From: Xylogone sp. PMI_703
Taxonomy: Eukaryota > Ascomycota > Leotiomycetes
Direction: 5' to 3'
Assembly (NCBI GenBank): GCA_021399445.1
Contig: JAJTUQ010000003.1
Location: 6,138,001-6,202,000 of the forward strand
DNA length: 64,000 nucleotides
The position numbers were made by a program, and so were the translations under genes. Shown in pieces: positions 231 to 61,439 of the stretch. Position 1 is the first letter of the stretch. The number at the start of each line of letters is the position of its first letter. The notes under the pieces were generated by a model. It ran no database searches. It was not told the DNA's origin and saw only the letters and a program-made list of their open reading frames with translations.

Positions 231-1906
231 CTAGTTCTCTTGCGCAGCAAGTATGGTCACTGGATCTGTTCTCTTTTTGAAAACTGCTTGAACTGCTCCC
301 CCAGTCGTGGTGTCTGTGAAGGAGTCCAACTCCCAGCTATCTAGCCTACGCATCTTCCACACTAATGCTATATCGTTAGTAAGATCAAGGCACCACAACT
401 TAAGCTTATCAGCACGATTTGTGTCATAACCCCTGATAGACTGTCGTTTACCAAGACGATGCCATGTCCCATAAGCAATCTGTAGCGGAATCTGTAGACG
501 TAATGCGACAAATGGTAGAGCAGGGCTAAGATTAAGGGCGTACTGAGCGCATCGCGCTATAGAGATAGCAGCATGTATTTCTTTCTTCCATATAGTATCC
601 AAGTTAAAGAGTGTTTCCGTGGCTGGTACTATATCACACAGTTTCTGGGTAATGCCACAGAGCAGAATCTGCAGGCTATAAAAACGAACAACTAGCTCAA
701 ATACAGCAACTGAATCAAAATGCCAGGATTCTGCTGTTATCCACGAATGGGATAGTAGAGTAGGCACATCTACTTTATGCAGCTGGAGCAATTGCACAAA
801 ATTTGCCTCATTATCGTCGAGAGAGAGGGATCGGAGAAGCTCTACTGCCTCTCCGTAGCTGCTTGCGTCAGCTGATAGGTGCTGGCAAGAGCGTACTAGT
901 CGGGCCAACCGGGGAATGCGAGCCATATTGCAGATCAGTGGCTGAGAGACAATATCAAATAGTCCACTTTGGGTTGATGTATCTGGTTGCAGTGACCTAA
1001 GCCACAAAGGGCTATCTGACATCGAATCTCGACCTGCCATAAGCGCCTCAAATGCCTAAAAAGCAGTTAGCAGGACTATCTCCGCCTGCATATAATGCAT
1101 CCCCTTACCTCATCGTAGATTGTGGATTCATAGAGGGCCCAAGTTATTCCTTCACTTGGTGATGGTGGGCCACGAAGTTTGAATAGTTGAATAAAGCTTT
1201 GGAGGTGTACGACGTAGATGTATGCACCGACGTTTAAGAATATCTATTGTAGGTTAGTCGCACATTTTAGCGTTTGTCAGAAAACATAATCATGCCTCAG
1301 CACCTATATGAAGCTTGATAGCAAGTAGCAAGTCGCATATTTGCTGTGGGCTCTTCCTCGCCTGTTTCCAGCTAAGACGGAGTTGCTTTTGGGCTTTTAT
1401 GCCTGAACGTCGAGCTGCTAAACGGGCCGGGTCAGACTCTAGCAGCCATGATTCTATACTATCAAGTAAGAATATAGCAGCCACATCGACCATTTTACTC
1501 GAGCCTAAGTGTGACGGTATATCTGTAATCCAGGTCCCGAATATACGTAGAGGATTAACTGTAAGGGGTTTTGGCTGTAGAACCGAAACCCACCGCGATG
1601 CCAGCTGTGTCGCAAAAGTTGGTGGCATTGGCTTTGGCAAGCCAAATGTCACACGATCACGCTGGTTGATAACACTAAGCCTCGATCCATCCTTCTTCCT
1701 TGCATCAGGAATTTCCGCAACGAAAACTAGTGCCTCTTTATATGTATATCTGCAAAGCCGCGGTCTCTTATTGCAATTACTGCAACTTGGCTTCTTTTCA
1801 TCGCACTTATACAGGACTAAGCATCATTTTCAAATAGCGATGCATATTGCAAACATACCTTAATTTTTCGTATCCGACATGCCTGACACTTTCGTATCTG
1901 CGTCAT
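231..1906 (-). CDS. Zn2Cys6 (GAL4-type) fungal transcription factor, 4 exons
   Basis: Nuclear DNA-binding regulator. Exons read 1906-1859, 1805-1296, 1243-1109 and 1055-231, giving about 505 residues. The binuclear zinc cluster is split by the first intron (GT-AG, 1858-1806) and has six cysteines at residues 7, 10, 17, 24, 27 and 34, spaced C-x2-C-x6-C-x6-C-x2-C-x6-C with a basic stretch RIRKIK. The start at 1906 puts the cluster at the extreme N-terminus, as is usual. The rest resembles the helical middle and C-terminal region of fungal C6 factors. Intron 2 only keeps frame if it uses a GC donor (GAG|GCATGA at 1295) with the CAATAG acceptor; the nearby GT donor at 1303 shifts the frame. It lies 4.5 kb from the RiPP genes, so a role in regulating them is possible but unproven. 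Family call is firm; target genes are unknown. Confidence 0.85.
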
Positions 1907-3440: not shown

Positions 3441-4307
3441 TCATCTACGGAAAACCCCTCCACCTACTGTATTCGAACGATCATTGGGAACCTCATCTAA
3501 TTTCTTGAGAGATTTCAGTTTAGGGGGTACAAATCCCTTGGCAATGAAACCAAATACTTTCATAAACTACACGATATTGTGTTAGAATTTAGTCGCTATA
3601 TCGCCAAGTTTGCAATGGAAATCCTCACCGCCTGGTCCAAAATCTTAATATTTCCCGGTAATGCGATATAGGTATCACCTTCATAGAATACCCTCAAGGC
3701 CATCAAAAGACCTGGGGAGCTTGCTTGGAACATATCCTGAAAGAAGAGCGCTTTGTATTCTCCTGGTGGTGCATTCTTCTCGACAAATGTAACCCTCACC
3801 CCCTTTATAACTGTGAAGCTATGAACTGTACCACGAGGGACGATGAGGGGCTCATCGCCTGCCCTGACAATGATTTCTTTTCCGTTTACGAAAAATTTCA
3901 TCTGGCCCTCAGTCACTTCCAGTATCTCATCATGGTGCTGTAATACAATATCTGGTTATCTGTTGTTTGCGGAAGAGAAAACCAAAAGCTGGGTAGTTAT
4001 GGCGGCTTTGAGCGTACCTTGTGCCAATGGCCCGGCACGGCCACGATATCAGATCCTTCCATTCCATCATAGGTAGTCTCACACCAATTGCGTCCGACAT
4101 CCTGGACGGATTTGCTCTATTTATTCAATCTTAACTAGGCAAACGTATAGAGTAAGATTGGGATGTACACTAACATGATCAATGAAGATACGCATGTGGC
4201 TCCCCTATGAAGATAGCCATCATTTTAGTGATAGATCCCTGATACAGCTCATTGTTACATACCTTTCCCACAGTAATCGGCATTAGTTCTTCAATTTGAG
4301 ACGACAT
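3441..4307 (-). CDS. small single-domain cupin protein, 5 exons
   Basis: Exons 4307-4263, 4204-4175, 4101-4018, 3937-3629 and 3566-3441 all join in phase 0 and give 197 residues. Cupin motif 1 is HWHKHHDEILEVTEG at residues 50-64, with two to three histidines and a glutamate able to bind a metal; motif 2 is PRGTVHSF about 40 residues on. No signal peptide is seen. The last intron (3628-3567, with a CTAAC branch site) replaces a short read-through tail with a C-terminal exon ending VFRR. Cupins of this size act as isomerases, cyclases or oxygenases, or have no known activity. It may be an accessory enzyme of the RiPP locus 2 kb downstream, but nothing in the sequence proves this. Confidence 0.8.
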
Positions 4308-6371: not shown

Positions 6372-7412
6372 TCAATCGATTTGTTGCCCCCCATACTTTT
6401 TGTCATCTAGCCGATGAGCTTTAGCCCAAGAATTGATTGGGTCCATGTCTCTGCATTGGACTTCAGTGTCCCAGGTGGCAAACGAGCCCTCTGCTCGCTG
6501 CATAGGAGTTCGGTGTAGATATTCCTCTGTGTAATGCTTAATGCCACTTTCATCTACGTAACTATAATTGGAGTTCCACCAATAAACCAGTGCAACATCT
6601 CCGTGACATAAAATTGACTGCCGAATCATATCGAAACAATGATCTAAACAAAATTTAATAGTTAGCCTCTCGATATTTTGACAAAAATGCTATCACTTAC
6701 TCTTGTGGAACTCAATCATTTTTGGTGAGTCGTTGGGGAAGAATTTATCTGGATAAAATGACTTTCGGATTCGATTTAGACAATGCATTTGGTGGTACAC
6801 AGCTAATCCATAAGCCATATAGCCAGGATCATTGAAAGCCTCAATAGTTTCGGGGAGGTTTAAGCTAATGGCTTTGGCTTTAGGTATTAGGATCATATCA
6901 TCGTGCTCTAGATACGGTTAGCTAGGTTGTGGCAACTTAAGTTTATCATAAGGAATCCACCTCTTAGCCACGAATCCCAAGCATGTTCTACTTTTTCTGA
7001 TGTTGAGGATTGGAATATTTTCTGGGGCTTGTACTTAGTATTGATATATCGAACCACACCATCCTCACGCAACGGAGCTTATTTGTCAATAGTTAGTTCG
7101 GCAGATCTATAGAATGGGATGAAAATAATGACGCTAACAATACGGTGGTGTAGGCCATTCTGGGTGTGTTACTCTCAAATTGAGCAAATATATTATAATG
7201 AATAAGAACAAAATGCAAAGACCAATAAGAAGTGAAATCCAAGGATTGGATCGAATTTTTTGGAGTAATCCTATCCGTTGTCGAGTAACATAATTCCCTA
7301 TGAAACCCTTTTCCTCCTGAATTTCATGAGAATCTCTATCTTCGACATCATCTTCACCAAGATAGAGCGGGACATATTTAGTGTGGCTTGTTTGAGGAGA
7401 CGAGGAGGCCAT
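6372..7412 (-). CDS. UstYa-family (DUF3328) oxidative cyclase of a RiPP pathway, 4 exons
   Basis: Exons 7412-7139, 7077-6961, 6907-6701 and 6643-6372 join in phase 1 and encode 289 residues. A cytosolic N-terminus is followed by one membrane segment (about 57-79), then the conserved PYSP sequence (90-93) created by the first splice. Both diagnostic HxxHC motifs are present: HQMHC at 168-172 and HKNHC at 197-201, the second completed across the last intron and followed by FDMIRQSILCHGD. In ustiloxin, asperipin and related pathways UstYa homologues catalyse oxidative macrocyclisation of the core peptide, probably with copper held by these histidines. Here it faces the repeat-containing precursor across a 686-bp divergent promoter, so it is the likely cyclase for that peptide. 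All key residues are intact. Confidence 0.92.
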
Positions 7413-8098
7413 GATTGTTATAACGGGTTAACAAAACGTAATAGATTGTATAATATAGAGAGTAAGGTAAAATATTTGACTTGATCATGGAAAAGAGGAG
7501 ATCTTGAAGTTTACTTCAATTAAAGCAGTGCTTTTCGCAGGTCTTTCATTTACTCCCGATAGGGCTGAACTGATCACATGCTAAACGATAATGCGCGGGA
7601 TTCGTAATGGGACTGGGCGGCACGGAAGCAGCTTGAAACTGTGGTACCCATGCATTTATTATCACACCGTATATTGGTCTTAGTCTATCCAATTCTCCAA
7701 AAATATGGATGCGGATCTTATCAACGATTGATCTTAGAGCTTGATAAGAATTTTGATAATCTTTTCTCCTAAAGATTGGCGATAATTGGCCTACCCGCCG
7801 ATCACTTCTAGGTTCTTCTGACCGCTTGTGGGATATTCCATATGATTATATCAATAAGTTGGATTAATGTTTCAGTTTAAAAATGGAAAGACAAAAAAAC
7901 GTCATGATTTGCTCACCCGGACTTTCATGCGCTTGACGGTCGACATTCCTCATTCAATGGGAGTGGCTGAGTAATTTATAAAAAAGCTTTGGATACCCAT
8001 TGTCAACATTCAAGAGAAAACAATCAATTAATATCAACTAACTCAGATTCTACTTCAATCACAACTCTTTTCTGCTTCAAAGTATTAAGCAACTAAAC
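7413..8098. promoter_or_regulatory. bidirectional promoter region between UstYa-like oxidase and RiPP precursor
   Basis: The two genes are divergent, so this 686-bp stretch must carry both promoters. No ORF is seen. A TATA-like element sits near the precursor side. Confidence 0.6.
7977..7986 (+). promoter_or_regulatory. TATA-like box of the RiPP precursor gene
   Basis: The sequence TATAAAAAAG lies about 120 bases upstream of the precursor ATG, leaving a leader of roughly 90 bases rich in CAAT/CAAC. Position and sequence fit a TATA box; it is inferred only. Confidence 0.45.
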
Positions 8099-8524
8099 AT
8101 GTATGCTAAGACAGCCTTATCTTTTGTGATCACTACACTGATCATAACTTCGGCGGCTGCTCCTACTCCATTGTTAAGCAACCTGCCTGGAGCTATTGAA
8201 AAACGCAATAATCCAAAATTCGACTATCCCGGAAATCCCGATGAAGCTTTCGACAAGCGCAATAACCCGAAGTTCGACTATCCTGGTAGCCCTGATGAAG
8301 CCCTCGAGAGACGCAACAACCCAAAATTTGACTACCCTGGTAGCCCTAACGAAGCTCCTGAAAAACGCAATAACCCAAAGTTTGACTACCCTGGCAGCCC
8401 GGATGAAGCCCTCAGCAAGCGCAACAACCCAAAGTTCGATTATCCTGGCAACCCCGACGAGGCACTTGAAAAACGCAATAACCCAAAATTTGATTATCCC
8501 GGAAACCCAGATGAAGCTTCATAA
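8099..8524 (+). CDS. RiPP precursor peptide with six Kex2-delimited repeats (UstA/GigA-like)
   Basis: 141 residues in one exon. Residues 1-21 form a signal peptide ending in SAAA, and residues 22-36 a short leader ending EKR. From residue 37 there are six copies of an 18-residue unit (the last shortened to 15): NNPKFDYPG, then (N/S)P(D/N)EA, two variable residues, and KR or RR. The dibasic sites are typical for Kex2 cleavage in the Golgi. The first nine residues are identical in all six copies and contain the aromatic F and Y expected for UstYa cross-linking; the acidic tail varies and probably acts as spacer. Known relatives by architecture are the ustiloxin, asperipin, phomopsin, epichloecyclin and victorin precursors. 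The core sequence matches none that I know. Exact core borders and the final structure are inference. Confidence 0.93.
   Translation: MYAKTALSFVITTLIITSAAAPTPLLSNLPGAIEKRNNPKFDYPGNPDEAFDKRNNPKFDYPGSPDEALERRNNPKFDYPGSPNEAPEKRNNPKFDYPGSPDEALSKRNNPKFDYPGNPDEALEKRNNPKFDYPGNPDEAS
8207..8521 (+). repeat. in-frame tandem repeat, 54-bp unit x 5.8, encoding RiPP cores
   Basis: Units begin at 8207, 8261, 8315, 8369, 8423 and 8477 (last unit 45 bp). DNA copies differ at many third codon positions while the NNPKFDYPG part of the protein is unchanged. Confidence 0.95.
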
Positions 8525-9351
8525 AGAAATAGACTGAAAGCAAATGTAAGTGAAACTATCCATACTTTTTATATTGAAGGTTGGCTAATGTATGGAAGAT
8601 CGAAAGTCAGCGTGAATAATGCTAGATTATTCATATCGGTTTTATAGGAATGGAAGAAACAGCGTCATTAGCTTTCATTAAGTATCTATTTAGAGCCTAG
8701 ATTACTTAGAAATTGATCAAATGCTGGACACTTTTGCTTAACACTTCATATTTGTGAATCGCTTGCCGTGCTAGAATGGATCTGAAGTGTACAATATTTC
8801 CTGGTTAAATAAAATAAATAAATTTATGCTAACGGAATTCCTTTACCAGCTATGGTCCATGTAATACTGACGTAGAAACTCAAGACTTCTTCTATTTCCT
8901 GTATCCGGATGAAACATATTATGTAAGCATCCTTCCATGTCAGAGATATTGCTTACGTAATTGGCGTTGGCCAATCATAGCTGTAGAAGCTAACGGTCGG
9001 TAAAAGAGAAGAGTTTTACCGGTTTACCCCTATGTACTGTACATCATCAAGACTAGCAACGAATAGAGTCTCTGTACCATACAATTTATATGTGGAGTAG
9101 CCTAACCACTGCGCCATAACCTCTGACATTCCACATCCCAAGTTACCTGCTTCCAGCCCTATAGAGCTGAATTTCTATAATGCATTCCTCGGCAGGCCAG
9201 AGAATATTATATCTCGTACAAATGACGCTAAATGAGAATGCATCTATACTCTTCATATTAAATTACAATCTATGTATCAGGAGGCAATCGATTTTTTACT
9301 GACATTCTTGATACACTAGCTACAATATTTGCTTATTTGAGATTCGGAAAG
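8525..9351. other. convergent intergenic region, no gene recognised
   Basis: 3' region between the precursor (plus) and the S28 peptidase (minus), moderately AT-rich. Nothing else recognised. Confidence 0.5.
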
Positions 9352-11083
9352 CTACAACCATTCTGCCAAAGCCTGAGAAAAGTAGAATAGTGCAATGGCC
9401 CCTCCGGGGTGACCCAAGGTGAAGTCGACGCAGTGCTCGGCATTTTCAATCATATATCCAAAGAAAGTGCTCTCATTCCCTGGTTGGTTATATTGAGGAA
9501 TCTCAGTTGTCCAGCTGACCCCACCAGGAGCAAAACTTGTCTTGGAGAATGGAGTCAGACCGCGCCAAGGATCATAGTCACCCACAGTCCAAAATACATT
9601 AGAAGGACGCATCCTGAATCCCCCAGTCGCCTGGTTGACAGCTTGTGTCCGTGGTTGAGCTGGCAAGGCCCCACTTTCAACCGCACCAGGGAACTGCTGG
9701 TAACATTGCTTCTGACGGTATTCAAGCGAAAAATATCTGGAGACTAGTGATTGTAAACCGCTGTTGTATGATGCAAAGAATCCCCATTGGCTGCACAGCA
9801 ACCAGGTCCATGCAATAGAATCGGGATTCGACTCACGCAATTGAGACATGTCGCACAGGGCTTCGTGGCTCGTATTCAGCTGTCTGCAAGTCGATTGAAA
9901 AAGATTTTTGATCATGGTAGTAAGCAAGGGCCAGGCGGCAAATCTCTCCGTCATATACTTCACTCCGTACGCCGTGACAAGACCTTCTGCAACAGCTTTT
10001 CCAGTTGGGGCATCACTCTCCAGGTAGCTACAGAATAAACCCAAGGATCTGCCTCTACCACCCATTCCATGACTTTGAAAGGAGCTGTAAATATTTGCCA
10101 GTGCAAGAGCAAAGTCCCCATTATCCATTTGCTCTGCACTAGGACCTAGGAAGAGCTGCTTTATCTCCGAGGCGGTATCATTCTTAGACAATTGTCCATC
10201 AACATATATCATAATCTCATGCATATCTCTTGCACAATTGCCGTATCCATATGCCACCATGCCTCGATAAATTTGGTCGAAAAAGGAGCTTAGATCAATG
10301 CGAGCCTCGACAGGTGCTGATGAGGCGTATGCAGCATAAAACGTATCAGGATAGACCTGGCGTGAGAGTGCAGCCCTCGCACCGGGGTAGGAACAACCAA
10401 TCATGATCCATGGCGTTGATTGTGGACTGAAGTCAACATTTAAAAAACGCTGGCGACGGAATGTACGAGCAAAATAAGGAATATCAGCTAAGGCTTGCTC
10501 ATAAGTGAGATATTTGAAATGTTCATACGGGGTGTCCAAGTTGACAGGAAATGGAAGAGAATCTCCAAAATAGCTGCACTTGTTAACGAAAATGACAGAA
10601 TGGAAAGACAAAATTTCAATTACCGGTGCTCCCACACAATTCCAAGACCATGGAATTTTTTCAAGATGTCAACTAAATAGGAAGACCCATTTGCCAGGTA
10701 GGTGTGCGCTGCGCGCTCTGCGTTGCTCTCCCCGGCATCATGAATAAACACCGGTCCTCCAGGTTGGTACAGCTCATCGTTGACCCAAAACCGATTCCGA
10801 TATGTTCCAATAGATAGATTTTCATGATCGATAGGGAGCTATAGATTCAAATTGTCATGTATAAACGAAGTTTAATAATTATAGTGTACTTTATACTCAC
10901 AGCAGCATACTCAACAGAGATTTTATAATCTTGAGGAGATTTATTAGGCTCAAAAGCCCACCGGGAACCTGAAAACCACTGAATACATTTTGCAAAATGA
11001 TCCCTAAAATAGCTTTCACCAGATACCCAGTTTAGAAAGTACACAAAACTGAAGAGGTAATATATTATGAAATTCTGCTTCAT
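9352..11083 (-). CDS. secreted serine peptidase, family S28 (Pro-X carboxypeptidase-like), 3 exons
   Basis: Exons 11083-10901, 10838-10624 and 10573-9352 give 539 residues, normal for the family. A signal peptide (about 1-22) is followed by the S28 fold: RNRFWVND, GGPVFIHDAGE, and WEHRYFGDSLPF, the last formed only if the second intron ends at the inner acceptor GTGCAG. The nucleophile motif is GCSYPG with Ser194; the Asp is in DYDPWRG (Asp467) and the His in EHCVDF (His513), so the triad is complete. S28 enzymes cleave after proline in peptides. S28 genes occur in the victorin RiPP locus, and the core here contains proline, so trimming of Kex2-released peptide is a reasonable role. It is the second cluster gene on the minus strand, 668 bp from the exporter gene. 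Confidence 0.9.
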
Positions 11084-11751
11084 CTGGTATCTTTTTACTT
11101 AATAAATTGCGCAAGTGTATATTTTCGACTTTGAGATGATGTGATGAGCAGTATTTATGATGTTCGAATTTTTAGGGTAGGCTTTGAAAGGTGCAGATCT
11201 AATCAATAGATTTGGCTTGTGCCTCTGAAATATCCAATCAATGTAAAATGTAGCATAATTTTTTTGACTAGCTTAGGTATGACAGAAGTTGACCAATTAT
11301 TTTGTGATCCATACTTCAAACTTGTTGAAGTGATAGATACGCTTATTTTGTTTTTCATGAAGTAATATTGCAGCTACACCGTATAAATGTACTGTATGCC
11401 TTTTCAGAACGTCTCCATAAATAACTACCTTTTAACTATCCTTGTAATTATGGAACTACGTACCAATGAAATAGGACAATACTTGAAAGGTACATAAGAG
11501 TTTTTAAATATAACTTGTGAAGAGTCAAAGAAGAAGGCCAAAATCTATAGACAGTTTTTAGTGCATATTTTAGAAGTTCTTAGAATCTGGTGAAAGAAGA
11601 ATATTCTAGGCCAAAGGGAGTAAGAGCCAACACAGATTTTACAATGCCACATGTAACTACGTAATTGAAATTCTGGATATTTGTGTCAAGGTTAGTATAT
11701 GAGATAGAGAAAAAGAGAACACTACTCATTATCCTCCCTCCTAATCTGTCA
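11084..11751. other. intergenic, promoter of the S28 peptidase gene
   Basis: AT-rich region between the MFS 3' end and the peptidase start. No ORF recognised. Confidence 0.5.
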
Positions 11752-13401
11752 TTATTTTTCTAAGTAACGACGCAAAGAAATTGACATGATAAATGTAAGA
11801 CAAAAGATGCTACATGCACCATAGAACGGCAATGAATTCGGAAGGTTGTTGTCTTCTCGAAGAGTGAATGAGAAAAGGCCTGTCCAAAGTGGGATACCTA
11901 CTAATCCTGCCATTGTTTGCATCATGCTGATACCCATGTAGAGCATTTTGATAGATTCTTCATCAACCAGAGCACTAGTGGCGTAAGATCGAAGAGAATC
12001 TGCTTGTCCAGATCCCAATGCATATACACTCAACCCAACAATATAGAGAACTCCAGAACGCTCTATTCCCATTGCAAATATTCCCATGATATTAACAATA
12101 GCACTAGTCCAAATCACCCACAAATCAACTTGCCGCTTACCAGCAATCCATAATCTCATTAGATTATTGGATATAAATGGCAGGCTGAGGAGAACCAATC
12201 CTGCGATTACTAATTCTAATGATAAAACTTTACTAACAGTTGCCAGTGTCCAGTGAAATGAGCTTGATGCCCATTGTTGAAAATTGACATGGACAGACAT
12301 TGCCACACCATTCCCGAGGAAAATAAGCATGATGAGGCGTATCAGTGGGTTTTGAATGGCATCTCCAATTAGCATGAACGATAAAGGAAGATCCACACTA
12401 AATGCTCGAAGGATGGTTTTCCATAATCCTGGTTTTGACAAGTGAGCTGGTGTTCTACCAGTTTCCACCTCTGACGAAGGAATATGAACATAATGAGGCT
12501 CGGCGGCTGCGGGAAGCAAAATAATAGTAGGTAGAGTGAGGCTATATATACCGACTCCAATTAGACATAGCAGCCAAACATCGATCTTCAAAATTACTGA
12601 GCCAAGGAATGTGCCCAGAGATGTTATTCCTAATAAGATTGAGCTGGTGTGGTATAGAGTATTACTCCTACAGTTGATATATTAGCAATTATAGATTATA
12701 CAGAAATAGCTCATGCTACTTCAATTCTCTTAGCCATGAAACAGATGTGCTAAAACAAATGATGACATTGCGTAAAAGAGAACATCTTACAGATTGTCTA
12801 CATCTTCACTGTCTGCAATATAGCTATACAGTAACGCGTTCTGCACGGGGACACCGCCTCCAACAAACTCAAACAGAGAAGTGAGCAGTACCGTGTGAAC
12901 GTTAAACAGCTCATAAAAGTAGCCTGAATGGTTCTAAGTCAACTGATCTATTAGTGCATTTTGGCAATAGTGGTGCACTTACACACGAACGAGAAGTATA
13001 TGGACCCAATAACAAAACTGCAGAGACTAATCAGAAGTACAATCTTCTTTCCAGTTATTAAAGCTAATCGTGTATATATTGGTGTAGCCAAAAACCCTTT
13101 GTGTTTTATATTAGCAGCTTAAAGATGAAATGGCACATTGGTTAATCTCACCTGCAATTAAGATACCTACATTGAAGGCTCCATGGAGTAGAGCAAGCTC
13201 AGACTGAACTGGATCAATTTTACACTTTATTTCAGGAATCCTTCCGTTAGGTAAGATAGCTGAGGGATCTGAGATTTTGTAAAAGGTTCGACAAAGAGTC
13301 TGTTCCATTAGGAAAACACGTGTTGTGCCCACCATTGCGTTCCCCAATCGAATTAACGACATGCTGAATACACAATACCAAGTAACAGGGCTCATCTTCA
13401 T
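11752..13401 (-). CDS. MFS transporter, likely RiPP exporter, 4 exons
   Basis: Exons 13401-13152, 13096-12983, 12923-12791 and 12667-11752 encode 470 residues. Hydrophobic segments consistent with 12 membrane helices run through the protein, with a loop between helices 1 and 2 (NGRIPEIKCKIDPVQSE) and the hydrophilic centre after LLPAA. The run TPIYTRLALITGKKIVLL resembles the MFS signature loop between helices 2 and 3. Sequence identity to drug-efflux subfamilies is not obvious to me. It shares strand and neighbourhood with the S28 peptidase and UstYa-like genes, so export of the cyclic peptide or self-protection is the likely job; asperipin-type clusters also carry an MFS gene. No break is seen in the frame once the introns are removed. 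Confidence 0.82.
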
Positions 13402-17772: not shown

Positions 17773-20700
17773 CTAAGTCGGTACGGGTGTCCCACTTGTT
17801 ATGGTTGTTGCAGTCCCAGAGATTCCAATACATACATACACGAAGGCCTGTAAGCCTGTACAATCTCCATTTAATGCTGGGTTCCACGTGTAGAAATTCC
17901 TATCATATTTAATTAGCTTTCACTAGCATAAGAAAATATATGTAAGGTATATACTTACGAAAGAGATATGCCTGCTTCTGCGGCCACATCGAAGCAATCA
18001 TTACCGCTTTCTACATAGTAGAAACGTTTACACCCACTCACCATACCAGGCTTTTATGGTGTTAGAACATAGCTCACTAAGAGGATTACAAGGTTTAAAC
18101 TAACCTGCACTGGAGTTGGTGTCGCCAGCCCTCCAGCTTTAGTTGTAGTTGTAGTCGCAGGGGCTGATGCTGGAACAGGCGTGCCAGATGTTATAGTCGT
18201 TGCGGGTCCAGTAAGACCTATACAAACATAAACAGAGGCTTGGAGGCCCGTGCAATCTGTTTTCACGGCAGGCTTCAAATTGTTAGTGCAGGGTAGAACT
18301 AGCTAGAGTGAGCTGACTTACATTATAGGAGTAGAAGCTATCTGTGGTAGGCATTATAGTTAGTAGAGTAGTATTTGGAAGCAGAATTACTGATTCTGAA
18401 CTTACTAAGAGGAATGCCTGCCTCGGCAGCCAAGTTGGAGCATCCGTCACCACTTTCAACCAAATAGAATCTTTCACATCCACTAACCATACCAGACTAG
18501 ATTACGATTAGCTGTGATTATCCTGAAATATTAGGGAGTTAAGACTCTTACCTGAACAGGAGATGGTGTTGTAAGACCCGAGCCTGGTGTAGTTGTGGAA
18601 GAAACCTTGCTTGTGGTTTTGCTGGATGTTGTAGAGCTGGCTGTTTTGCCTGTGGTAGTGATGCTTTTTGTGGTGCTTCTCGTGGTGCTTCCCGGGGTGC
18701 TAGTTGTGACACTAGTTGCGGGTGGAGGCGTAGAATTGCCTGGCATCTCAACACAAATATAGTAGTTTTGTTTCAGCCCTGAGCAATCGTTGCCAAGTGC
18801 AGGCTATAGAACAGTTAGCATTCATAGCTACAAAAGAGTTTTAAGCCTAAGAGTCTGTTTACATTGTAGCTCTCTAGTTGAGCGACGGTAATATTGTTTA
18901 TGCTTGCAATAGAACTGCAGGTATCTAATCTATACGGAATTTAGTACGGGTCTTAGTCGTTGAATATAATATTTAGATTGGTACATACGTTCCAACAAAC
19001 CAGTAATTCGAACATGAAGCTGAAATCCCAGCTTGTTCAGGTTGTGGACCGACTCCATTTGATGGAAGTGGAGTAGAACTATAAGTCGTTGTTCTGGTTG
19101 TTGGGGTTGACGGAATTGCAACGCAGTAGTAGTCACCCACAGTAAGGCCGGAGCAATCCGTACCAAGAGCCGGATTCCAGTTCTGGAAGTCTGTCAAGCT
19201 GAATGTACCAAAGATCTCAACTATTATTTGACAGGAATCTCCACTATCTGCTCTGTACCATGATACACAGTTGGATGCAATGCCGGTCTGTGTTGGGGTC
19301 GGTGGGGTTTTTGCTACAGATGGCAAAGGAAGTGTACCATTCATGACGCAATAATAATCCCCTGGAACCAACCCAGAACAGTCAGATCCCAGTGCAGGCT
19401 GATAAGTTAGTTAGACTATATGTCACGGATATTTCACGACTTACATTATATTCCTTAAGCTCATCCAGAGTGACATACCCTTCTGTCTCCACAATTGTAT
19501 CACAAGTATCATTAGAGCTTGCTTGATAGAATGCGAGACAACTGGGAGGGATACCACTCTGCGTTGGTGAAGCAATAAACGTAGTATTGAGTGTTGGGGC
19601 AGTTGTAGGAGTATATGACGGATACCAGAAAGATGTTGCGGTGGTGGTATTCAGAAGACTTGTCTGATATTGAATTCCTATAAAAGTCAGCTGTATTTCC
19701 GACTGTGGCTTAAAATATAGAATCTTACCAACGCAGACATAATAGTTAACATAGAGACCGCTGCAATCGGCGCCAAGGGCTGGATTCCATGATAGACTTG
19801 ATATTAATGTCAGCTTCTGTTCAATATACGATGAATAAGGAAGCTTGGGAATTAGTACAAGTCATCCATTGACATTGAAGTCGAATAACGGCCCTGTATA
19901 CTGTTGCATGTATCTCCCGAGTTCACAAGTTTCCAGTTATTGCCTAGAAAAATGTCAGCTTTGTCTAACTTAAGAACCTTGTATTCCTACAGTAAGATAC
20001 TTGCCCAGCCTGGGTACGAGTAGGTGGCCAGGAAGTAGCCGTTCCGATTGTAACCGGCACGTAAGAGGTTGTAGGCTCTGGAAGTATAGAGTATGTAGCA
20101 GGTGTGGTAGTAGTAGTCTTAGTAGTTTTAGTAGTAACGACTGGGCCAACCCCTACGCAATAAGAATCTCCAACCCAAAAATTAGTTCCACAGTCCGAGG
20201 AAATAGCGGGCTTAGCAGATATTAGTCAGCTATTGTGAACAAGAGCTGTTTATCTTGAGACTTACATTCCAGAGCAAGAATTCCGCATGTGTTATGTTGA
20301 AGGCAGTTTCAATTGTTCCACAAGAATCACCGGTCACTACGTCGTACCACTTGTTGCAGTTGCTGATAGTACCAGTTTGTGTCGGTTTGTCAGGTGCTGT
20401 TAGATAGTGTGTATGCTTCGTAGTTGTCGTGGTGGAAGCACATTTTGCTGTTGTCGTCCCGACGCAGTAGCTATCACCAACCCAGAAGTTGGTGCTGCAG
20501 TCGGATGCTACAGCTGGCTTCAAAGGTCAGTACACTGTCTGAGATAGATTGGTAATGAACTTACATTCCATTGAAGGAACTGAGCAAGAGTGATTCCAAA
20601 TGCGCTCTCAATGGACTGGCAAGAGTCACCAGTTACTACATCGTACCACTTGTTGCAGTTACAGGCAGTTCCAGATTGTGTTGGCAGATCCGCAGTTGAG

Positions 20701-21155
20701 TGAACAATTGTGTGCGCTCCAGAAGTAGTCTTGGTAGTAGCTTTGGAAGTAGTCTTGCTGGTTGTCTTACTAGTTGTCTTGCTACTAGCAGCGGAAGACG
20801 TGCCTACACAATACGAATCTCCAACCCAAAAATTAACAGCACAATCAGAAGAAACTGCTGGCTATGAAGTATCAGCATTTAAATTTTTAATCTTGGGCCT
20901 ATAACCTACATTCCATGCTAGAAATTGTGCATTCGTTATTCCGAAGGCGGCTTCAACTGAGGCACAACTATCGCCAGAAACTACATCATAAAATTTGTTG
21001 CAGTTTTTTGCAATTCCGGTTTGTGTTGGTAAGTCCGCACTTGTTTTATATGATGTATGGGCTGCTCTTGGGGCGATTTGAGCGTCATTCACGTCAATGA
21101 TGCCTGTTGGTATATTTAAAACTGCTAAGACAGCTGAAAGAGATGGTAAATGCAT
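17773..21155 (-). CDS. secreted protein with nine LysM domains, about 15 exons
   Basis: Following exons by phase I read nine LysM modules, each with the pattern C-x3-(W/Y)-x4-S-G/N-D-(S/T)-C ... (F/L)-x2-(W/Y)-N-PA-x3-DC and joined by Thr/Ser/Pro linkers. The N-terminus is hydrophobic and probably a signal peptide. LysM modules bind chitin or N-acetylglucosamine oligomers. The gene ends at a TAG at 17775-17773, after the last module and a short tail. Total length is estimated at 880-910 residues. Six of the 14 introns fall at the same place and phase, directly after the Asn of (W/Y)N|P, showing growth by exon duplication. Module 4 lacks the first cysteine and its upstream splice is uncertain (donor at CAA|GTATCT or ACTC|GTACCC). 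It sits next to a chitinase on the same strand, a recurring fungal arrangement; roles include chitin shielding or targeting of the chitinase. Confidence 0.85.
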
Positions 21156-22240
21156 TGCATCTAATCCGAGTTCCTTTACGGAACGGAACTACAGCTGAAA
21201 TTCAGATTTGCAAGTAATTCGAGCAGTGGTATAGCGGCATAAGAGGGTAGATCGACAATTCAATACAGAAAACAATACCTGTCACAATGGAAGACACTGA
21301 CAAAAGAGCTAAGAGTAAAACTTGCTGCAATCGGGACAAGAGGGGGAGAGCTGGATCGATAGCCGTGGGCCAAGAGCAGGACCCAAACATCAGGCTCCTT
21401 CAACTATCCACAATCTGGCTCTCTTTCTCAATCTAGCCCACCTTCCGTGGTGGACTAAGTCTTATCCTAGAAGTTGCAAGACACAAGACAAACTAACCTA
21501 CTTTCGGCTCTTGGAAATGCTTCTCTACCCTGCCCCTGCTCTTGCATGAAGCCCCGGACCATGAGCTTGATCCGGATTACATGCATGTACGCGTAGGAAT
21601 TGGAACTAACACAGCTCCTTCCATAATCCTACTCTATGCGCTTGCCTTTTACGATAGAAATTGCCCCCACTATATGGATTTTTTTACGTTTTTGCCCTGC
21701 TGCGCCGTATTGTCTTTACCGCAGATTTTGGAGAAGACACGGGTAAAAGCGGCCACAAGGGTCCAATTCATGCAAGGAGTCATTATTGCAACTTTGATTA
21801 GTATATCATGTACTTTATTTATCGTGGATAAAGTCGATTCAGGCCGAAGTAATTGACGTGTCACGCGGTAGTATTGTCATCGAATACTGGATGCTCCACT
21901 TCATCCGAACTCACAAGCTCAAAAATTGTTTGACATGGGTAATAAACCAACCAACTCAAAGAACGTTTCAAAAAAACCACATAAATTTGCCAAGGCTAAG
22001 CGCATAGTAAATATTAGATTCATGATGAGTTGAAGAAATCGGTTTGTCTAACAAGATTACATAAGTTTCGCATGTATATACGCACTGCGTAGTGGATGTT
22101 GCCCTTCAAAGTATTGTTTGGAGCATTTCATGGAGATTTTTTACTAGATGATACAATATTTTACGCCTGAAACAGTAGAGTTTGTAGCAGTGTAGTTTAG
22201 GGATAAGATAGTGCTTATTTTTATCATGCGATATACAATT
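21156..22240. other. promoter region of the LysM gene
   Basis: Region between the chitinase 3' end and the LysM start. Short frames only; nothing recognised. Confidence 0.5.
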
Positions 22241-24278
22241 TTATGCAGTTCCCAAATCTGTGGTGTTTGAGTTTGGATCTAAAAGACTGGGATCATATAC
22301 TAAAGATTTGTTACGACTGAGATCCGATCCAAGAGCATCAATGGTACCTCCATCGTCCATATCTAGAGCCCATGCCATTGTCCTAAAGTTAAGTGAGCAA
22401 AATATCTAGAGAAATTCACGCCAAGAAAATTTATTCTTACCCTCCTAGACAGTGATCATTGGCATATTGAACCCTTGAGAAAATACAATTAATTTAACTG
22501 TCTTGGAACTGGAGATTTGAGAGACTTACTTTAATTTCATGGTTTCAGCATCATCATAGGAGACCCATTGATTTTTGTCCCATGTAATGATCTTGACAGC
22601 TGCAACAGGGTCAAATGTGACGGTTGCTCCGCCATCTGCTACGATTTGTCTAATCTCGACAGCTGAAAGGATGCCAGACGTGTTTGTACACACCCCAGGA
22701 TTGCCACCACCGGAGAATGGACAACCCGCTTCAAGACATGATGGGTTTGACATTGTAAAGCCTATTGCATTATTTTTAGTGGTACTATCCATAGGCGTAC
22801 TGAACTATCGACTTACTGCGGCCGTAAAAGCCGAGCCCAAGATTTACTGATATGAATAGTTAGCGTCGACATAAGCGCAGAGAATGTACATAATCACCTT
22901 TCGCGGGATTAATATGATTCCTCCAGAGCAGTTCCAGACTTTGCTGTATCTCTGTTAGGTTAGTGTGTGCTTGCGCAACGGAACCTATAGCAGGATCTGT
23001 AGAGTCCCAAGTTCCGTGAATATCGTAGGTCATAATATTGAAGAAATCAATTATGGGGTCAATTTTAACAACATCAAAGCCGCGCATATACCAATACGAA
23101 GATGGCTAGAAAAGTTTAGAATCAGGAAGTCATAGTGTGACTGTTTTTTACTCACGATTGTAATTGATATTCCTGGTCGTGTTGGCATTCCACTCTCGTC
23201 TAATGCTTTTCTGAGATTCTGGAGAAATGTAGGATAATTTTGTAGGTCAGCGTCCTTCCCTCCTCTGTCTGATGCAACCGGGTACTCCCTATTCGCCCGT
23301 TAATTTTGATGCCACAAATTGGAATAAGAGTGGTTTACTAAGACTTACCAGTCAATATCAACGCCGTCAAATCCATTTGTCTGCATGAAGCTGATTAGTG
23401 AATTGAAAAAATTTGACTGTGCGCTAGCTGAAGATGCGAGATCAGAGAATGTAGTTGTTGTTGGTCCAGGATCATTCATAGACCATCCTCCCACTGAGAT
23501 CCAGACTTGCAGCCCGGGCTGTGCAACTTTTAATTTGGTAACTCTTTGATAAAGCGCAGCAACATCTGATCCCATGGGAGCAATATTGAACGTTTTTGGA
23601 TCAATCAATGCAAATGCAAAATTGATATGTGTGTAATACCCTAAAGGTATCTGTTCAGGAGTCATAGCTATGACATTGTCAGCATTGCACTTCTCTCTAT
23701 GAGTTTGATTCACATACTACCGCACTCTCGTTCGAGATTCCAACCTTCGTAGTATCCAATAGTTCGAGCATCAGAACTAGAACCTCCACAGGAAGGAGAG
23801 ACTACCGTTTTTGCTCCGCAGAAATCAGATGTAGTACCTGCGGCAGTTTAATCAATACGTTCCTTTGGAGATTCAAATCACCGTAGCTCACCGCAGAAAC
23901 CATACTCGCTGCAACAGACATTAAGAGGACATGCTTCTGCTGTAGACCACTGCGAACCCCATCCAGGATCGCATTCTGCTTTTTGGTCGCATGTGGATGT
24001 GCAGTTTCCTTTCCCGCAAAATGTAGGTCCTGTATTTCATTAGCATGGAAGTTCACGCAGCTCAAGAGTCAAAGATCGAACCAAGTCCACAATTTCCCGT
24101 CCTAGCAAGAGATTAGTAGTTGAATTTTGGGTATTTTTTTTTAGAGTAGAACTGACCCATCAGCTTCTAGTCTACAACATCCGCTGGCGCATTTTTGTGT
24201 CGCCGTGCATGTATATACTGCGTAGATAGTAGGAAAGATGCTGAACAATACAGCCGGTAGAAGCACGAATAGCTTCAT
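22241..24278 (-). CDS. GH18 chitinase with type-1 chitin-binding domain, 11 exons
   Basis: Exons 24278-24157, 24101-24082, 24029-23892, 23837-23721, 23667-23349, 23288-23156, 23105-22898, 22846-22817, 22761-22530, 22473-22441 and 22382-22241 join without a frame break into 497 residues. A signal peptide (about 1-20) precedes a cysteine-rich ChtBD1 module (about 43-98; CGLGPTFCG to CCSEYGFCG). The GH18 barrel starts at RTIGYYEGWN, contains SVGGWS, and has the catalytic motif DGVDIDWE with Glu240 as acid/base, then MTYDIHG, GLGFYGRSF and GGTMAWALDMDD. It hydrolyses beta-1,4 chitin outside the cell. The arrangement and the neighbouring multi-LysM gene fit subgroup C-like fungal chitinases, though no LysM lies in this protein itself. 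Two exons are only 20 and 30 bases. Confidence 0.92.
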
Positions 24279-55834: not shown

Positions 55835-56011
55835 TGTTGTGGTAAGGAATCCGCGCGCGGGTAATAGTGGTTCTACCGCCGAAACCTCCGAATTTTATAT
55901 ATAGAGTGGTTTGTACAGTATTACAATAGACAGCGATTTGTACTCCTATTTTACAGATATACGAACTCTGATTGACTCTCTTACGATTGCTACGATTGTT
56001 ACAATATCGCA
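55835..56011 (+). repeat. probable 5' LTR of the gypsy element
   Basis: Begins TGTTGTGG, contains CCGCGCGCGG and a TATA-like TTATATATAG, and ends ...ATATCGCA. It is less AT-rich than its flanks. The 3' partner is not in the window, so borders are inferred from the TG...CA ends. Confidence 0.55.
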
Positions 56012-56937
56012 ATATTGGTGATCGTATTATATGATGTTGTTGTTGTTGTTCGTTGCATACCTACATACCAGCTGCCAGAGATCATGTGCCTCCTATAGCA
56101 CTCACACCTTCCTTTTCACATTGGGGCACAATCCAGGGAAGACTGAAAATCAATCTTTTGAAGCTAAAGGATAAGTATAGCAATAAAGGAAACAGCAAAT
56201 ACTCGAAGAAAGTATTACTTAGAGTAAGCATGCCGAAAAACCCTGAAAACTTCACAATAAACAGAATCTAGAGACCGGAAAGGTGTACACAATCAATTGA
56301 TTACGGAGACACTATTCGGAGACGACAAAGACATTAAAGATATATAACATAAATCAACTAAAGGAGCTGACAGCAATACCATGTCAAGATAGTACAATTA
56401 TAGAGGGAATTCAAGGAAAAGAATTTCTATTTTAGAGGCAAAGCAAGAGTACCAGGAATCCGAAACACTATTAGCACAGGAAGAAGAAAGCTCTCAGGTC
56501 AGTTTTACTGACAACGGTATCAATCAGCATAAAAAGACAGGAAGAACTCAATTAATTGATTCAAAGATAAGTAAATTAAAAACTGAGAAAAGACCTCAAG
56601 AAAGCTAACTCTTTGACAGAAAGAAAATATAGAAACAGATAACACAAAAAGCGTTAAGAACAGCAGAATACTTTATTTTATTATTATTCAATATCATTTT
56701 ACTATTTTAAAATATTTTTATGTCTTAAGACTGAGAAGGTTAAGATAATCAAAGACCAAAAAGTTTATATACAACTAATAGGTTAACCGAAAGAACTTCA
56801 TCAACAGATTTAACAAGTAATATATCGAATACGGAAAAGAATATAACCTAAGCTTAAGAAACTCCTGGGATATCTTAACTTCAACTATATGAAAGTTCTT
56901 TATTCTATAAAACTTTATACCCCCTAAGTATATTACC

Positions 56938-57820
56938 TTATTTCGAAGAATAGAATATTATGAACTTTTTTGATTTACTTGAGGACAAGTTTAAATTAAC
57001 CGGAGAAAAGACAAATGATAAGATAAAAAAAATAAGGTTTACTTAGCATTATGACTTGAAAATCAAGTTTGTCATCAAGAATCTTAAGGTTTAGAAAGAA
57101 AAGGACTAAGAAACCTTTAAAACAATTTTACTTAAAAAGTTCAGAGATCAAAATATACAATAATAACAAATAACATTAGACTATTTAATTATGTTCAAGA
57201 GTAAACCTAGAACCGAGAAAAATAACCTAAGAATGTATACTAAAGAGTTCATATAAATAGTCTAAATATTATTAACGAAAAAAAAGATTTTAAGTTAAGA
57301 ATTAAGTTTGTATTATTTCCAAGAACTCCTGAATTAAATAAATAAGAAAATAATTAAGAAGTATAAAATAAACACGAAAAACAAAATAACAATAAACTTC
57401 AATAAATTAATTAAGAACTTCAGAAAGTAAGATAACAATTATAATACAATAAAGAAAGTTCAAAACTACAAAAAAAAGGAAAATATAAATAAAGTTATAA
57501 AATATTTTAACTAAGAAGTCAAGACCTCTGAAGACCTAAAGTTCTGACTACTAATAATCCTTAATCCACAGATATCAGGAGCCAGTGACATTATAGTAAA
57601 GGAGGACAAGATTATCAATAATATAATGAAAATATTTAAGACATTAACTTTAACGATAAAAGTCTTAAAAGATACTATCAAAACAAACAAAAACCCAAGT
57701 AAGAACAATAAAATAATTACCAGAAGCAGAAGACTACAGAGTCAAGGAGAAGCCGAAGTACAAGCGGCTGAAGAGAACTTTATAATTTGTTATTATTATG
57801 GCGAAGAAAACTATATATAA
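56938..57820 (+). pseudogene. gag remnant with a mutated CCHC knuckle
   Basis: Gag-like reading (KFKLTGEKTNDKIKKI) is followed near 57787-57820 by CYYYGEENYI, which corresponds to C-x2-C-x4-H: the second Cys is now Tyr (TGT to TAT) and the His is Tyr (CAT to TAT). Both changes are RIP-type, one on each strand. Confidence 0.6.
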
Positions 57821-58589
57821 TTATATTATAATATTTTTACAAGTAATATAGCTAATGGACTCTGTCACAAGAAGAATGACTAAGTTTATCATAGGCAGAA
57901 GAGTCCTAGTATCCTTGAAACTTAATTTTATCATAATACTCCTCAACGTAAGATTATTCTACAGTAGAGAAAAAATTCATAAGCCAGTAAAAAGTCTATA
58001 CCTACTAAAAATATATAATCATTAATAATAAAACTATCCGATAACAAATCTGACTTTGAAGACTTTATGACAGCTGAAGTATTTATTAAAGTAAATACAA
58101 CAAAAGTTAATAAACCAAAAAAAAAAAATAAATAACAATCAAAGAACAGAGTATTGAAGTAACAAACAGAAGACAAGAAAAAGCTAATTACCCCAAAGTT
58201 ATCAAAGTTGAACAATTAGAAGCCAATGAAGATTGACAATAACTTTAAGCCAGAAGATATAATTATTAATATAACAAATAATAATAAATAAAACAAGATA
58301 ATCAGATTTGTAGATTTCAAGACTCTAATAAAGCAAAAACTGTCACTTCTGGAGAAACTAAAGAATAACCTAAGTCAAGACTAAGTTTTGGACAAAGTTT
58401 TGAAGCAAAAGGTAGAATTGACAGTTAAAGAGATCTTGTCGTCATTGAATTTACTCCAGAAATTCATATTTAGGCATAAAAAACCAACAACTAAGAAAGA
58501 GATAAAGGTTCAGTATATTACAAAGAAAGAGAATCGTTTTTATACAGTTAGAATACCCAAAGTCAAAATATGGTTAAAAGAATATTATT

Positions 58590-58730
58590 AAGTAAAAAGT
58601 TTTCTTCGATACTGGAGCAAAGATTAATGTTATAACCAGTCGGCTGACTAACAAGCTCAGTTTATCAGTACGAACAAACCCAAAGATAGTAATAATATCA
58701 GTAATTAGAGAGAAGAAATAATTTAACAAT
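58590..58730 (+). pseudogene. retroviral-type aspartic protease remnant
   Basis: A stop-free stretch reads VFFDTGAKINVITSRLTNKL, with the DTGA catalytic motif, then SLSVRTNP. It directly precedes the reverse transcriptase region, as in gypsy pol. Confidence 0.7.
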
Positions 58731-59779
58731 ATATATAATGACATAGAAGTCAGAATCAACCTAATATCAATAACTATATATATATTTGTCATAAATAAAA
58801 CATCATTAAAGTTAATACTGAAGACCCTGTTTATATGAAAAACTCAGATGAAATTTAAGCCCAAAAAGGACAGAACATACATTATAATATATAATGAAGA
58901 TACGAACGAAAGAATGATTATACATATTTCTCTATCCCCGGAATATAATTATATTCAACAGCAAACAGACTAATCAAGAAACAAATAATTGACATTTCTC
59001 AGAGGCCGAATGTTAACAAAAAATAAATCTTTAAATATCATGGTGAAAAAGTAAGAAGTGAAACACAAAAGGTGAAAATGTAAGAATTACAAATTATCGG
59101 ATCAAGGAACATCTTACGACATACAAAATATATAGATAAAAAGGAGGTAAAAATACTTAAGATAATATAAACAACAAGATATACAAGATGAGATTCCTGG
59201 GAAAACGTCAAAACTCTTACAGAGGTTTATCTGTTGATGATGTACAAGAGAAAAGCTCAAAAGATATAACTAATAAATTTGGGAATTTCAGATAAGAGCA
59301 AACCAGGTGAAATTGACAATTAAAAAGAGGAATTAAAAATATTAGAAATATTATTAACAATCCTCGGGAAGTATGATCACTGGATTATGCCGAAGTTCTT
59401 GAAGATCAAGAAAAGAGAGCGTTTGATGCTGGAAAGGATAAACAAGTTGATTTTTGGTGACCAGCTAACACCAGAAGAACATAAGTTATTCATTAAATTA
59501 CTATACAACCAGGAGAAAGCAATTATTTTTGACTTTTCACATATAAGAATGATTAGACTAAAGATAATACTACTGTAAGTCATACGAATAATCAAGTATG
59601 ACGTATGACAAGAAATGAATATACTATTGTCAAAAGCCTTGATACTAATGGTTATACAAATGTTACAAGAACATATTGATCAAAGAGTACTAGAACAGAG
59701 TTATAAGCCTTATAAGAATAAGTAGTTCTTGGTCAAAAAGAAGATTAAGAAGATTTACTGATTAATAAATATAATTATT

Positions 59780-60950: not shown

Positions 60951-61439
60951 CCATCAAAGACCATATTAACACAGATCTGTATGTTATACAAGTAATGACT
61001 ATGTCAGTTAAACCCGAAAAGTTACTAAAAGACAAATACAGAAAAGAATTCTATACAATTACACAGTATTTATTGATGTTGATCAGACCTAAAGATATAA
61101 ATAAACAGGATTTCCGACTATTCAAGCAGAAAGTACTCAAATTCGAAGTTATCGATCGAATATTATACTGATAAGCTGACAAGAACATTCCAAGGACTAA
61201 AATGATTGATTCTACCGAAAAATAGCAGGAAATCATGAAGGAATTATACGAGAAGAGTAAGCACAGAAGACATAATAATACTTATTATAAAGTTTCAAAA
61301 AAATATTAATGACTACAGCTATATATACAAATGAGAGAATATTATGTTTTATATAAAGAATACTAAAGGAAAACAGGGGAAAGAACCTCTAATTTACTAT
61401 ATCCAACGTTCCTAGCTTACCTTTAGTAAACAGTTAACT

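What the first reader, a model, noticed from the sequence alone, without database searches (positions are those of the whole stretch)
6372..13401. A compact RiPP cluster with a core peptide I do not recognise
A secreted repeat precursor, a divergent UstYa-type oxidase with both HxxHC motifs, an S28 peptidase with a complete triad and an MFS exporter sit within 7 kb. This set matches the dikaritin/epichloecyclin/victorin logic. The conserved unit NNPKFDYPG differs from the cores known to me (ustiloxin, phomopsin, asperipin, victorin, epichloecyclin), so the product may be undescribed.
Basis: partly seen in the sequence, partly recalled or inferred. Interest (0 to 1): 0.92.

Follow-up and report, generated by a model that had tools for sequence, protein, structure and literature searches.

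The report
Uncharacterised fungal cyclic-peptide gene cluster
Four neighbouring genes in the mould Xylogone look like a small factory that cuts a repeated secreted protein into short peptides and cross-links them; the peptide was not found in the papers searched, but the kind of factory is already known.

Summary
The precursor (8099-8524, +) has six units NNPKFDYPG[NS]P[DN]EA after KR or RR. UstYa (6372-7412, -) has both HxxHC motifs, the second only after splicing. S28 (9352-11083, -) keeps its triad and, by alignment, the proline-pocket residues of Aspergillus niger prolyl endoprotease. The transporter (11752-13401, -) is MFS only through one relative. The organism is Xylogone sp. PMI_703: my spliced UstYa equals its public protein; the public set fuses transporter and S28, and the precursor was not among the proteins returned.

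New here: (1) codons 1-9 of the repeats show 72 synonymous and 0 amino-acid-changing pairwise differences; (2) one relative on an unnamed Logan contig has ANPKFDYPGSPDEL twice; (3) UstYa and S28 lie two locus numbers apart in Penicillium fimorum and Aspergillus bombycis, and these S28 proteins share a clade with the window's; (4) an Epichloe protein (56% identity over 78%) is in the same UstYa subfamily; (5) five further repeat precursors lie near 27 other UstYa loci examined, of 56.

Verdict: a UstYa-type RiPP cluster, epichloecyclin-like, product unknown; new member of a known kind. The 9-mer is the invariant block, not a shown product: conservation continues to Pro11.

The parts
8099..8524 (+). 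RiPP precursor gene, 141 aa, one exon: signal-like start, short pro-region ending in EKR, six units NNPKFDYPG[NS]P[DN]EAxx, five preceded by KR and one by RR
   Evidence: single match in the genome; not among the proteins returned by the protein search
8207..8524 (+). six repeat units in register (8207, 8261, 8315, 8369, 8423, 8477); residues 1-9 invariant with 72 synonymous and 0 nonsynonymous pairwise differences
6372..7412 (-). UstYa-family (DUF3328) oxidase gene, 4 exons, 289 aa, one hydrophobic helix (59-77), HQMHC and HKNHC
   Evidence: identical to public protein P0002, F5884DRAFT_786191 of Xylogone sp. PMI_703
6644..6700 (-). 57-nt intron that splits the second HxxHC motif of UstYa
   Evidence: P0017-P0020 carry extra residues at the same place, which looks like missed splicing (inference)
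9352..11083 (-). S28 serine peptidase gene, 3 exons, 539 aa, signal-like N-terminus; nearest solved structure A. niger prolyl endoprotease
11752..13401 (-). MFS-type transporter gene, 4 exons, 470 aa
   Evidence: relative L031 (24% identity, 1.2e-9) matches Pfam MFS_1 at 1.8e-14; three other relatives do not match MFS_1
7413..8098 (.). 686-bp divergent region between UstYa (-) and precursor (+); no regulatory site was looked for
   Evidence: coordinates

Best explanation
A four-gene RiPP cluster of the UstYa (dikaritin/epichloecyclin) kind. The precursor enters the secretory path; a Kex2-type protease coded elsewhere cuts after KR/RR to give six near-identical peptides beginning NNPKFDYPG; the membrane-anchored UstYa oxidises each and ties Tyr7 to another residue of the same peptide, most simply one near the N-terminus so as to make a ring of up to seven residues as described for epichloecyclins; the S28 protease cuts after proline (most likely Pro11, perhaps Pro8) and so removes the follower; the transporter exports the product. 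Shown: gene structures, motifs, selection on the unit, the UstYa-S28 pair by locus numbers in two other fungi. Inferred: every processing step, the ring, the export.
For: Gene models and families; UstYa identical to a public model. Codons 1-9: pS 0.85, pN 0; codons 11-14: pN 0.036; codons 15-16: pN 0.51, so what is kept is the peptide, not the DNA. P0001, from an unnamed source outside this genome (single match here), keeps NPKFDYPGSPDE in both its units. UstYa N7463_009279 and S28 N7463_009277 in P. fimorum, UstYa ABOM_002346 and S28 ABOM_002348 in A. bombycis, each pair with one contig length; in Xylogone exactly one gene, the precursor, lies between the two. The three S28 proteins fall in one 12-row clade of 120 rows, local support 100. 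S28 is nearest A. niger prolyl endoprotease, 3.1e-47, and keeps Ser194, Asp467, His513 and, at Glu98, Pro220, Trp388 and Trp469, the residues that PMC9147577 (passages) lists as conserved Glu88, Pro205, Trp374 and Trp460 (numbering; matching of Glu88 counted by hand on the alignment). All 12 clade members show the Ser, Asp and His motifs. Pro11 is invariant in 6 of 6 window units and 2 of 2 units of P0001.
Against: No expression, mass-spectrometry or mutant data. Only one UstYa and no tyrosinase match in the window, whereas ustiloxin's first cyclic intermediate needs UstQ, UstYa and UstYb (PMC6514808, passages). Residue 1, the ring partner described for epichloecyclins, is Asn here and Ala in P0001, not Ile. 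The genes between UstYa and S28 in the two other fungi were not seen, and nine of the twelve S28 clade members were not checked for neighbours. The two S28 proteins that are linked to UstYa elsewhere, P0078 and P0080, lack the pocket Pro that the other ten clade members keep. The transporter's membership rests on position alone.
Confidence: 0.78

Rival explanations
1. The precursor is a linear secreted repeat protein (pheromone-like or surface peptide) and the UstYa next to it serves another pathway.
For: Most KEPs are not beside a DUF3328 gene (6120 of 7878, PMC7329392, passages). This genome has 57 UstYa loci, so accidental neighbours are possible. Two pheromone-like arrays do lie within 10 kb of UstYa matches here (L019, L021).
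Against: Divergent neighbours 686 bp apart; Tyr in each of the six units; pheromone-annotated KEPs are almost never beside DUF3328 genes (same passages); this UstYa matches the rest of its genome only in pieces of 27-46% identity (best 1.6e-9), yet has relatives of 45-64% in other sources (18 of 19 aligned), two of them two locus numbers from an S28 gene.
Confidence: 0.12
2. A true orthologous epichloecyclin cluster: same UstYa, same ring (residue 1 to Tyr7) and N-methylated lysine.
For: Epichloe bromicola P0007 is 56% identical over 78% of the query and sits in a supported clade of 6 with A. bombycis. Passages describe a seven-residue ring through Tyr with methylated Lys (PMC6514808) and an N-terminal Ile tied to an internal Tyr (PMC9233826), which puts Tyr at place 7, as here.
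Against: Whether P0007 is the gig-cluster enzyme is not shown. The gig cluster is given as gigA, kexB, a DUF3328 gene and a hypothetical gene, with 27-residue repeats (PMC7317419, passages): no S28 named, and units of 18 here. No subtilisin-family match in the window and no Methyltransf_25 match there among the 50 of 121 candidates scored. Residue 1 is Asn or Ala.
Confidence: 0.3
3. A decayed cluster, no longer making anything.
For: Nothing direct; the precursor is missing from the proteins returned, which an unexpressed gene would also explain.
Against: All four genes give open frames, the eight introns begin GT and end AG, and codons 1-9 have no amino-acid change across six copies despite 72 synonymous differences.
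Confidence: 0.04

Closest known systems
Epichloecyclins (gigA cluster, Epichloe)
   Same: Secreted multi-unit precursor with Kex2 sites, a single DUF3328 gene, Tyr deduced at place 7, a Lys in the core; an Epichloe UstYa is 56% identical over 78% of this one
   Different: Here 18-residue units, S28 and MFS genes next door, residue 1 Asn not Ile; gig has kexB in the cluster (PMC7317419, passages)
Asperipin-2a cluster (Aspergillus flavus)
   Same: One DUF3328 gene in the pathway (PMC7329392, passages)
   Different: Described as bicyclic with two links from Tyr (PMC9233826, passages); relationship of its UstYa to this one not tested
Ustiloxin / phomopsin (classical dikaritins)
   Same: Repeat precursor, Kex2 sites, UstYa family, peptidase and transporter genes as a kind
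   Different: Two and five DUF3328 genes (PMC7329392, passages), a tyrosinase and S41 peptidases (PMC6514808, passages); here one UstYa and no tyrosinase match in the window
Aspergillus niger prolyl endoprotease (S28.004; PDB 7wab, 8b57)
   Same: Sequence match over residues 63-489 (7wab), catalytic and proline-pocket residues kept
   Different: The window protein belongs to a clade of which two other members lie two locus numbers from a UstYa gene; the niger enzyme itself was not in the tree

Membership tests
UstYa-type fungal RiPP (dikaritin in the broad sense) | Secreted precursor with repeated cores between Kex2 sites | tested here: met
   hydrophobic N-terminus (no SignalP available) and six units, each preceded by KR or RR
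UstYa-type fungal RiPP (dikaritin in the broad sense) | UstYa/DUF3328 gene close by with two HxxHC motifs | tested here: met
UstYa-type fungal RiPP (dikaritin in the broad sense) | Oxidative side-chain cross-link in the product | not testable with these tools
   needs LC-MS/NMR
Classical dikaritin (Ding et al. definition, as quoted in PMC12048977) | Multiple DUF3328 genes | tested here: not met
   one UstYa; nearest other match about 101 kb away on the same contig
Classical dikaritin (Ding et al. definition, as quoted in PMC12048977) | Tyrosinase gene | tested here: not met
   13 tyrosinase matches in the genome, none in the window
Classical dikaritin (Ding et al. definition, as quoted in PMC12048977) | Methyltransferase gene | tested here: inconclusive
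   one of many methyltransferase families searched, 50 of 121 candidates scored, none in the window; none among 15 flanking stretches scanned with Pfam, of 49 ORFs listed
Epichloecyclin | UstYa orthologous to the gig-cluster enzyme | tested here: inconclusive
   Epichloe protein in the same subfamily, its locus not seen
Epichloecyclin | Kexin gene in the cluster | tested here: not met
   33 Peptidase_S8 matches in the genome, none in the window; the nearest begins about 7 kb beyond its right end and some 58 kb from the cluster
Epichloecyclin | Seven-residue ring through Tyr, methylated Lys | not testable with these tools
   spacing compatible (Tyr7, Lys4)
Peptidase family S28, post-proline cleaving | Ser-Asp-His triad and proline pocket | tested here: met
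   activity untested
Major facilitator superfamily | Match to an MFS model | tested here: inconclusive
   no direct Pfam match; weak NCBIfam MFS match 6.8e-4 through P0024; of four relatives one, L031, matches MFS_1 at 1.8e-14, three do not

The most novel reading that the evidence does not exclude
A distinct, scattered subfamily of UstYa RiPP clusters defined by a dedicated clade of S28 post-proline proteases: the protease reads conserved prolines built into the repeat and sets the C-terminus of the ring peptide, a trimming step whose enzyme was still unknown for ustiloxin in 2019 (PMC6514808, passages). The family would link Xylogone, Penicillium, Aspergillus and perhaps Epichloe, with NPKFDYPG as a so far unseen core.
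Probability: 0.4. Interest if true: 0.62.

Novelty: new member of a known kind. Interest (0 to 1): 0.45.

Why it matters
Few UstYa RiPPs have known products (five listed in a 2022 review, PMC10512285, passages) against 1758 KEP genes with a DUF3328 gene nearby (PMC7329392, passages). If the reading is right, this cluster gives an exact core, a short list of ions to look for, and a protease whose preference for proline makes the C-terminus predictable. The UstYa-S28 pair is a handle for finding relatives. The fused protein model, and a precursor that the protein search did not return, suggest how such clusters are overlooked.

Tried and rejected
Precursor relatives: the protein search gave one hit at E up to 1 among 6466 candidates; it is limited to shared 5-residue words and to proteins of about 78-247 residues, so longer or more diverged precursors would be missed. 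The bacterial/archaeal genome collection gave none. Fold of UstYa: model of mean pLDDT 69.6, no PDB match at E 0.001 or better, no PDB sequence match better than E 0.44: not used. Transporter: no PDB sequence match at E up to 10; of four fetched relatives only L031 matched MFS_1, while L030, L032 and L033 did not. Papers: KFDYPG in 0 papers; S28 with DUF3328 in 0; UstYa, S28 and RiPP together in 3, one of which was looked into and used S28 as a table number, the other two not opened. All papers cited were seen as passages only. Considered and rejected: frame artefact (introns GT/AG; UstYa model identical to the public one); DNA-level homogenisation of the repeats (many synonymous differences). 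The UstYa tree holds 20 of the 22 hits (fragments P0021 and P0022 left out) and has no starred branch fixing Xylogone. The S28 tree is a FastTree of the 120 listed of 210 hits, without bootstrap. In one search my first pattern for the His motif missed most rows; one search repeats it with a better one. The P. fimorum and A. bombycis adjacency assumes that locus numbers run along the contig.
Full report
What is there. The precursor is a single open frame at 8099-8524 on the + strand, 141 residues, beginning with a hydrophobic stretch and carrying six 18-residue units (the last cut short), five preceded by KR and one by RR. UstYa lies on the other strand, 6372-7412. Its second HxxHC motif is cut by a 57-nt intron, so it does not show in raw frames; after splicing both motifs stand, and the 289-residue model is identical to a public protein of Xylogone sp. 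PMI_703 (P0002), on a contig of 8,055,043 bases, the length of the contig that holds the window. One paper calls this strain a mycoparasite (PMC11708051, passages). S28 (9352-11083) and the transporter (11752-13401) follow on the - strand. The public set has these two fused in one 886-residue model that lacks the signal-like first exon of S28 and both ends of the transporter (P0024); S28 relatives P0078 and P0080 start with their own hydrophobic leader, which favours two genes. The precursor was not among the proteins returned, and the genome shows a single match.

Selection on the unit. Over the 15 pairs of repeats, codons 1-9 show 72 synonymous and 0 nonsynonymous differences; codons 11-14 show 37 and 5; codons 15-16 show 13 and 30. 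So the copies have drifted at silent sites, while NNPKFDYPG, Pro11, Glu13 and Ala14 are held. Position 10 is Asn or Ser, position 12 Asp or once Asn, and the last two are free. A relative on a 1048-base Logan contig, P0001, has two units beginning ANPKFDYPGSPDEL; position 1 differs, the rest of the block and SPDE are the same.

The enzymes. UstYa scores 123.8 bits. Of the 19 relatives aligned with it, 18 are 45-64% identical and one (Daldinia, P0023) 26%; the named ones belong to Aspergillus, Penicillium, Arthroderma, Elaphomyces, Cladobotryum, Epichloe and Daldinia. Inside its own genome the other matches are pieces of 27-46% identity, so it looks like a dedicated subfamily. Of the 20 aligned sequences 15 show both HxxHC motifs; P0013, P0017, P0018, P0019 and P0020 show only the first as annotated, four of them with extra residues exactly at the intron site, which looks like missed splicing. 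S28 is nearest to A. niger prolyl endoprotease. A review gives the family's triad as Ser-Asp-His and lists Glu88, Pro205, Trp374 and Trp460 as conserved (PMC9147577, passages); the window protein has Ser194, Asp467, His513 and Glu98, Pro220, Trp388, Trp469 at these places (an offset of 42 links the chain to all four of the review's numbers, Glu88 by hand count). Which Asp and His numbers form the niger triad is from recall. In the 12-member clade the Ser, Asp and His motifs stand in 12 of 12, the pocket Pro in 10 of 12; the two without it are the P. fimorum and A. bombycis proteins, a point against a shared proline preference. Prolines stand at unit places 3, 8 and 11; Pro11 sits just before the acidic follower, which makes it the likeliest cut. 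The transporter has no direct family match; one relative in the same genome (L031, found at 1.2e-9) matches MFS_1, three others do not.

A recurring pair. In P. fimorum the UstYa and S28 relatives are N7463_009279 and N7463_009277, in A. bombycis ABOM_002346 and ABOM_002348, each pair reported on contigs of equal length. One number lies between, as one gene (the precursor) does in Xylogone. Those S28 proteins and the window's form a clade of 12 rows among 120, local support 100; the other nine rows, including Endocarpon pusillum, were not checked for neighbours. A. californicus and Elaphomyces granulatus also have both proteins, but listed on contigs of different length, so they neither support nor refute it. 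By coordinates, of the 9 S28 loci that I made out only this one is within 5 kb of a UstYa match; both lists may be incomplete, as the tool says.

Missing partners. No tyrosinase (13 matches in the genome) and no subtilisin-family protease (33 matches) match in the window; Methyltransf_25 has none there among the 50 of 121 candidates scored. Other methyltransferase families were not searched genome-wide. Of the 49 flanking ORFs listed between 1-6 kb and 13.5-26 kb, I scanned 15 stretches with Pfam; they gave F-box, Zn-cluster, cupin, DUF7730, LysM, GH18 and astacin matches or none.

Setting. The genome has 108 UstYa matches, which I grouped into 57 loci. I could read 20 regions of 10 kb and 8 short search loci (L007 lies inside L025), that is 27 loci besides the window's. 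With one scan for at least three similar 8-mers after dibasic sites, 5 further precursor genes appeared, in L002, L010, L016/L017 (one gene seen from two loci), L019 and L021; an antisense frame of L010 was dropped. In the rest of the 64-kb window there was none. There was no control on random regions outside the window, and the short loci hold only about 1.5 kb on each side of the match. This fits the pairing as common in this fungus and also shows that the cluster is one of several.

What it works like, and what it is. It works like the UstYa RiPP systems: precursor, Kex2 release, oxidative ring closure, trimming, export. By the broad definition it is a member on the two features that could be tested. 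By the older five-gene dikaritin definition it is not. Of known products epichloecyclin is closest: papers describe a seven-residue ring through Tyr and methylated Lys (PMC6514808, passages) and an N-terminal Ile as partner of an internal Tyr (PMC9233826, passages), which implies Tyr at place 7 as here. From recall, and in no paper text that I could find, the core of epichloecyclin A shares residues at places 2, 4, 7 and 9 with this one; that is a lead, not a test. Against identity are the gene set of gig, the repeat length and the first residue.

How sure. That this is a functional UstYa RiPP cluster I hold at about 0.8; that S28 trims after proline at about 0.55; that the ring runs from the N-terminal region to Tyr7 at about 0.5. 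The chemistry itself is unobserved.

Noticed in passing
L010 2644-3219 (G000:C1 near 1010570): Another repeat precursor beside a UstYa locus: eleven units beginning DFAEPLLGE after KR, secreted-looking start.
   Followed up: no
L016 9530-9979 and L017 3-452 (G000:C1 near 8104000): Repeat precursor with units QTTGDKSPKYEDYEV[ST] between two UstYa loci, with two tyrosinase matches at C1:8096533 and 8102267: a fuller dikaritin-type gene set than the window's. Cut by the fetched ends.
   Followed up: partly
L002 236-631 (- strand): Repeat precursor with units of the type [AEG]RDTDNVASY[EQ]W after KK beside the UstYa match at C20:1059338.
   Followed up: no
L019 955-1233 (-) and L021 9185-9427 (+): Two look-alike arrays (units ending in PQYRNADWKR and AQFSNKDWKR, with EA/EP steps in front) within 10 kb of UstYa matches, although pheromone-annotated precursors are reported as almost never beside such genes (PMC7329392, passages). 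That they are pheromones is my inference.
   Followed up: no
G000:C19:6466760-6469273: A tyrosinase match lies about 1.3 kb from a UstYa match, another possible RiPP-type locus.
   Followed up: no
window 11752-13401 and 9352-11083: Public gene model P0024 fuses the transporter with the S28 protease, and the precursor was not among the proteins returned.
   Followed up: partly
window 18000-24100 (-): A LysM match (20862-21185) and two GH18 chitinase pieces (22860-23102, 23345-23713), looking like a LysM-chitinase gene group next to the cluster.
   Followed up: partly
window 231-1823 (-) and 3596-3952 (-): A Zn2Cys6-like piece (below cut-off) and a cupin-type frame left of the cluster; could be regulator or tailoring genes, no evidence either way.
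   Followed up: partly
window 56001-64000: G+C drops to 25-29% from 39-55% in the rest, as in repeat-mutated AT-rich blocks.
   Followed up: no
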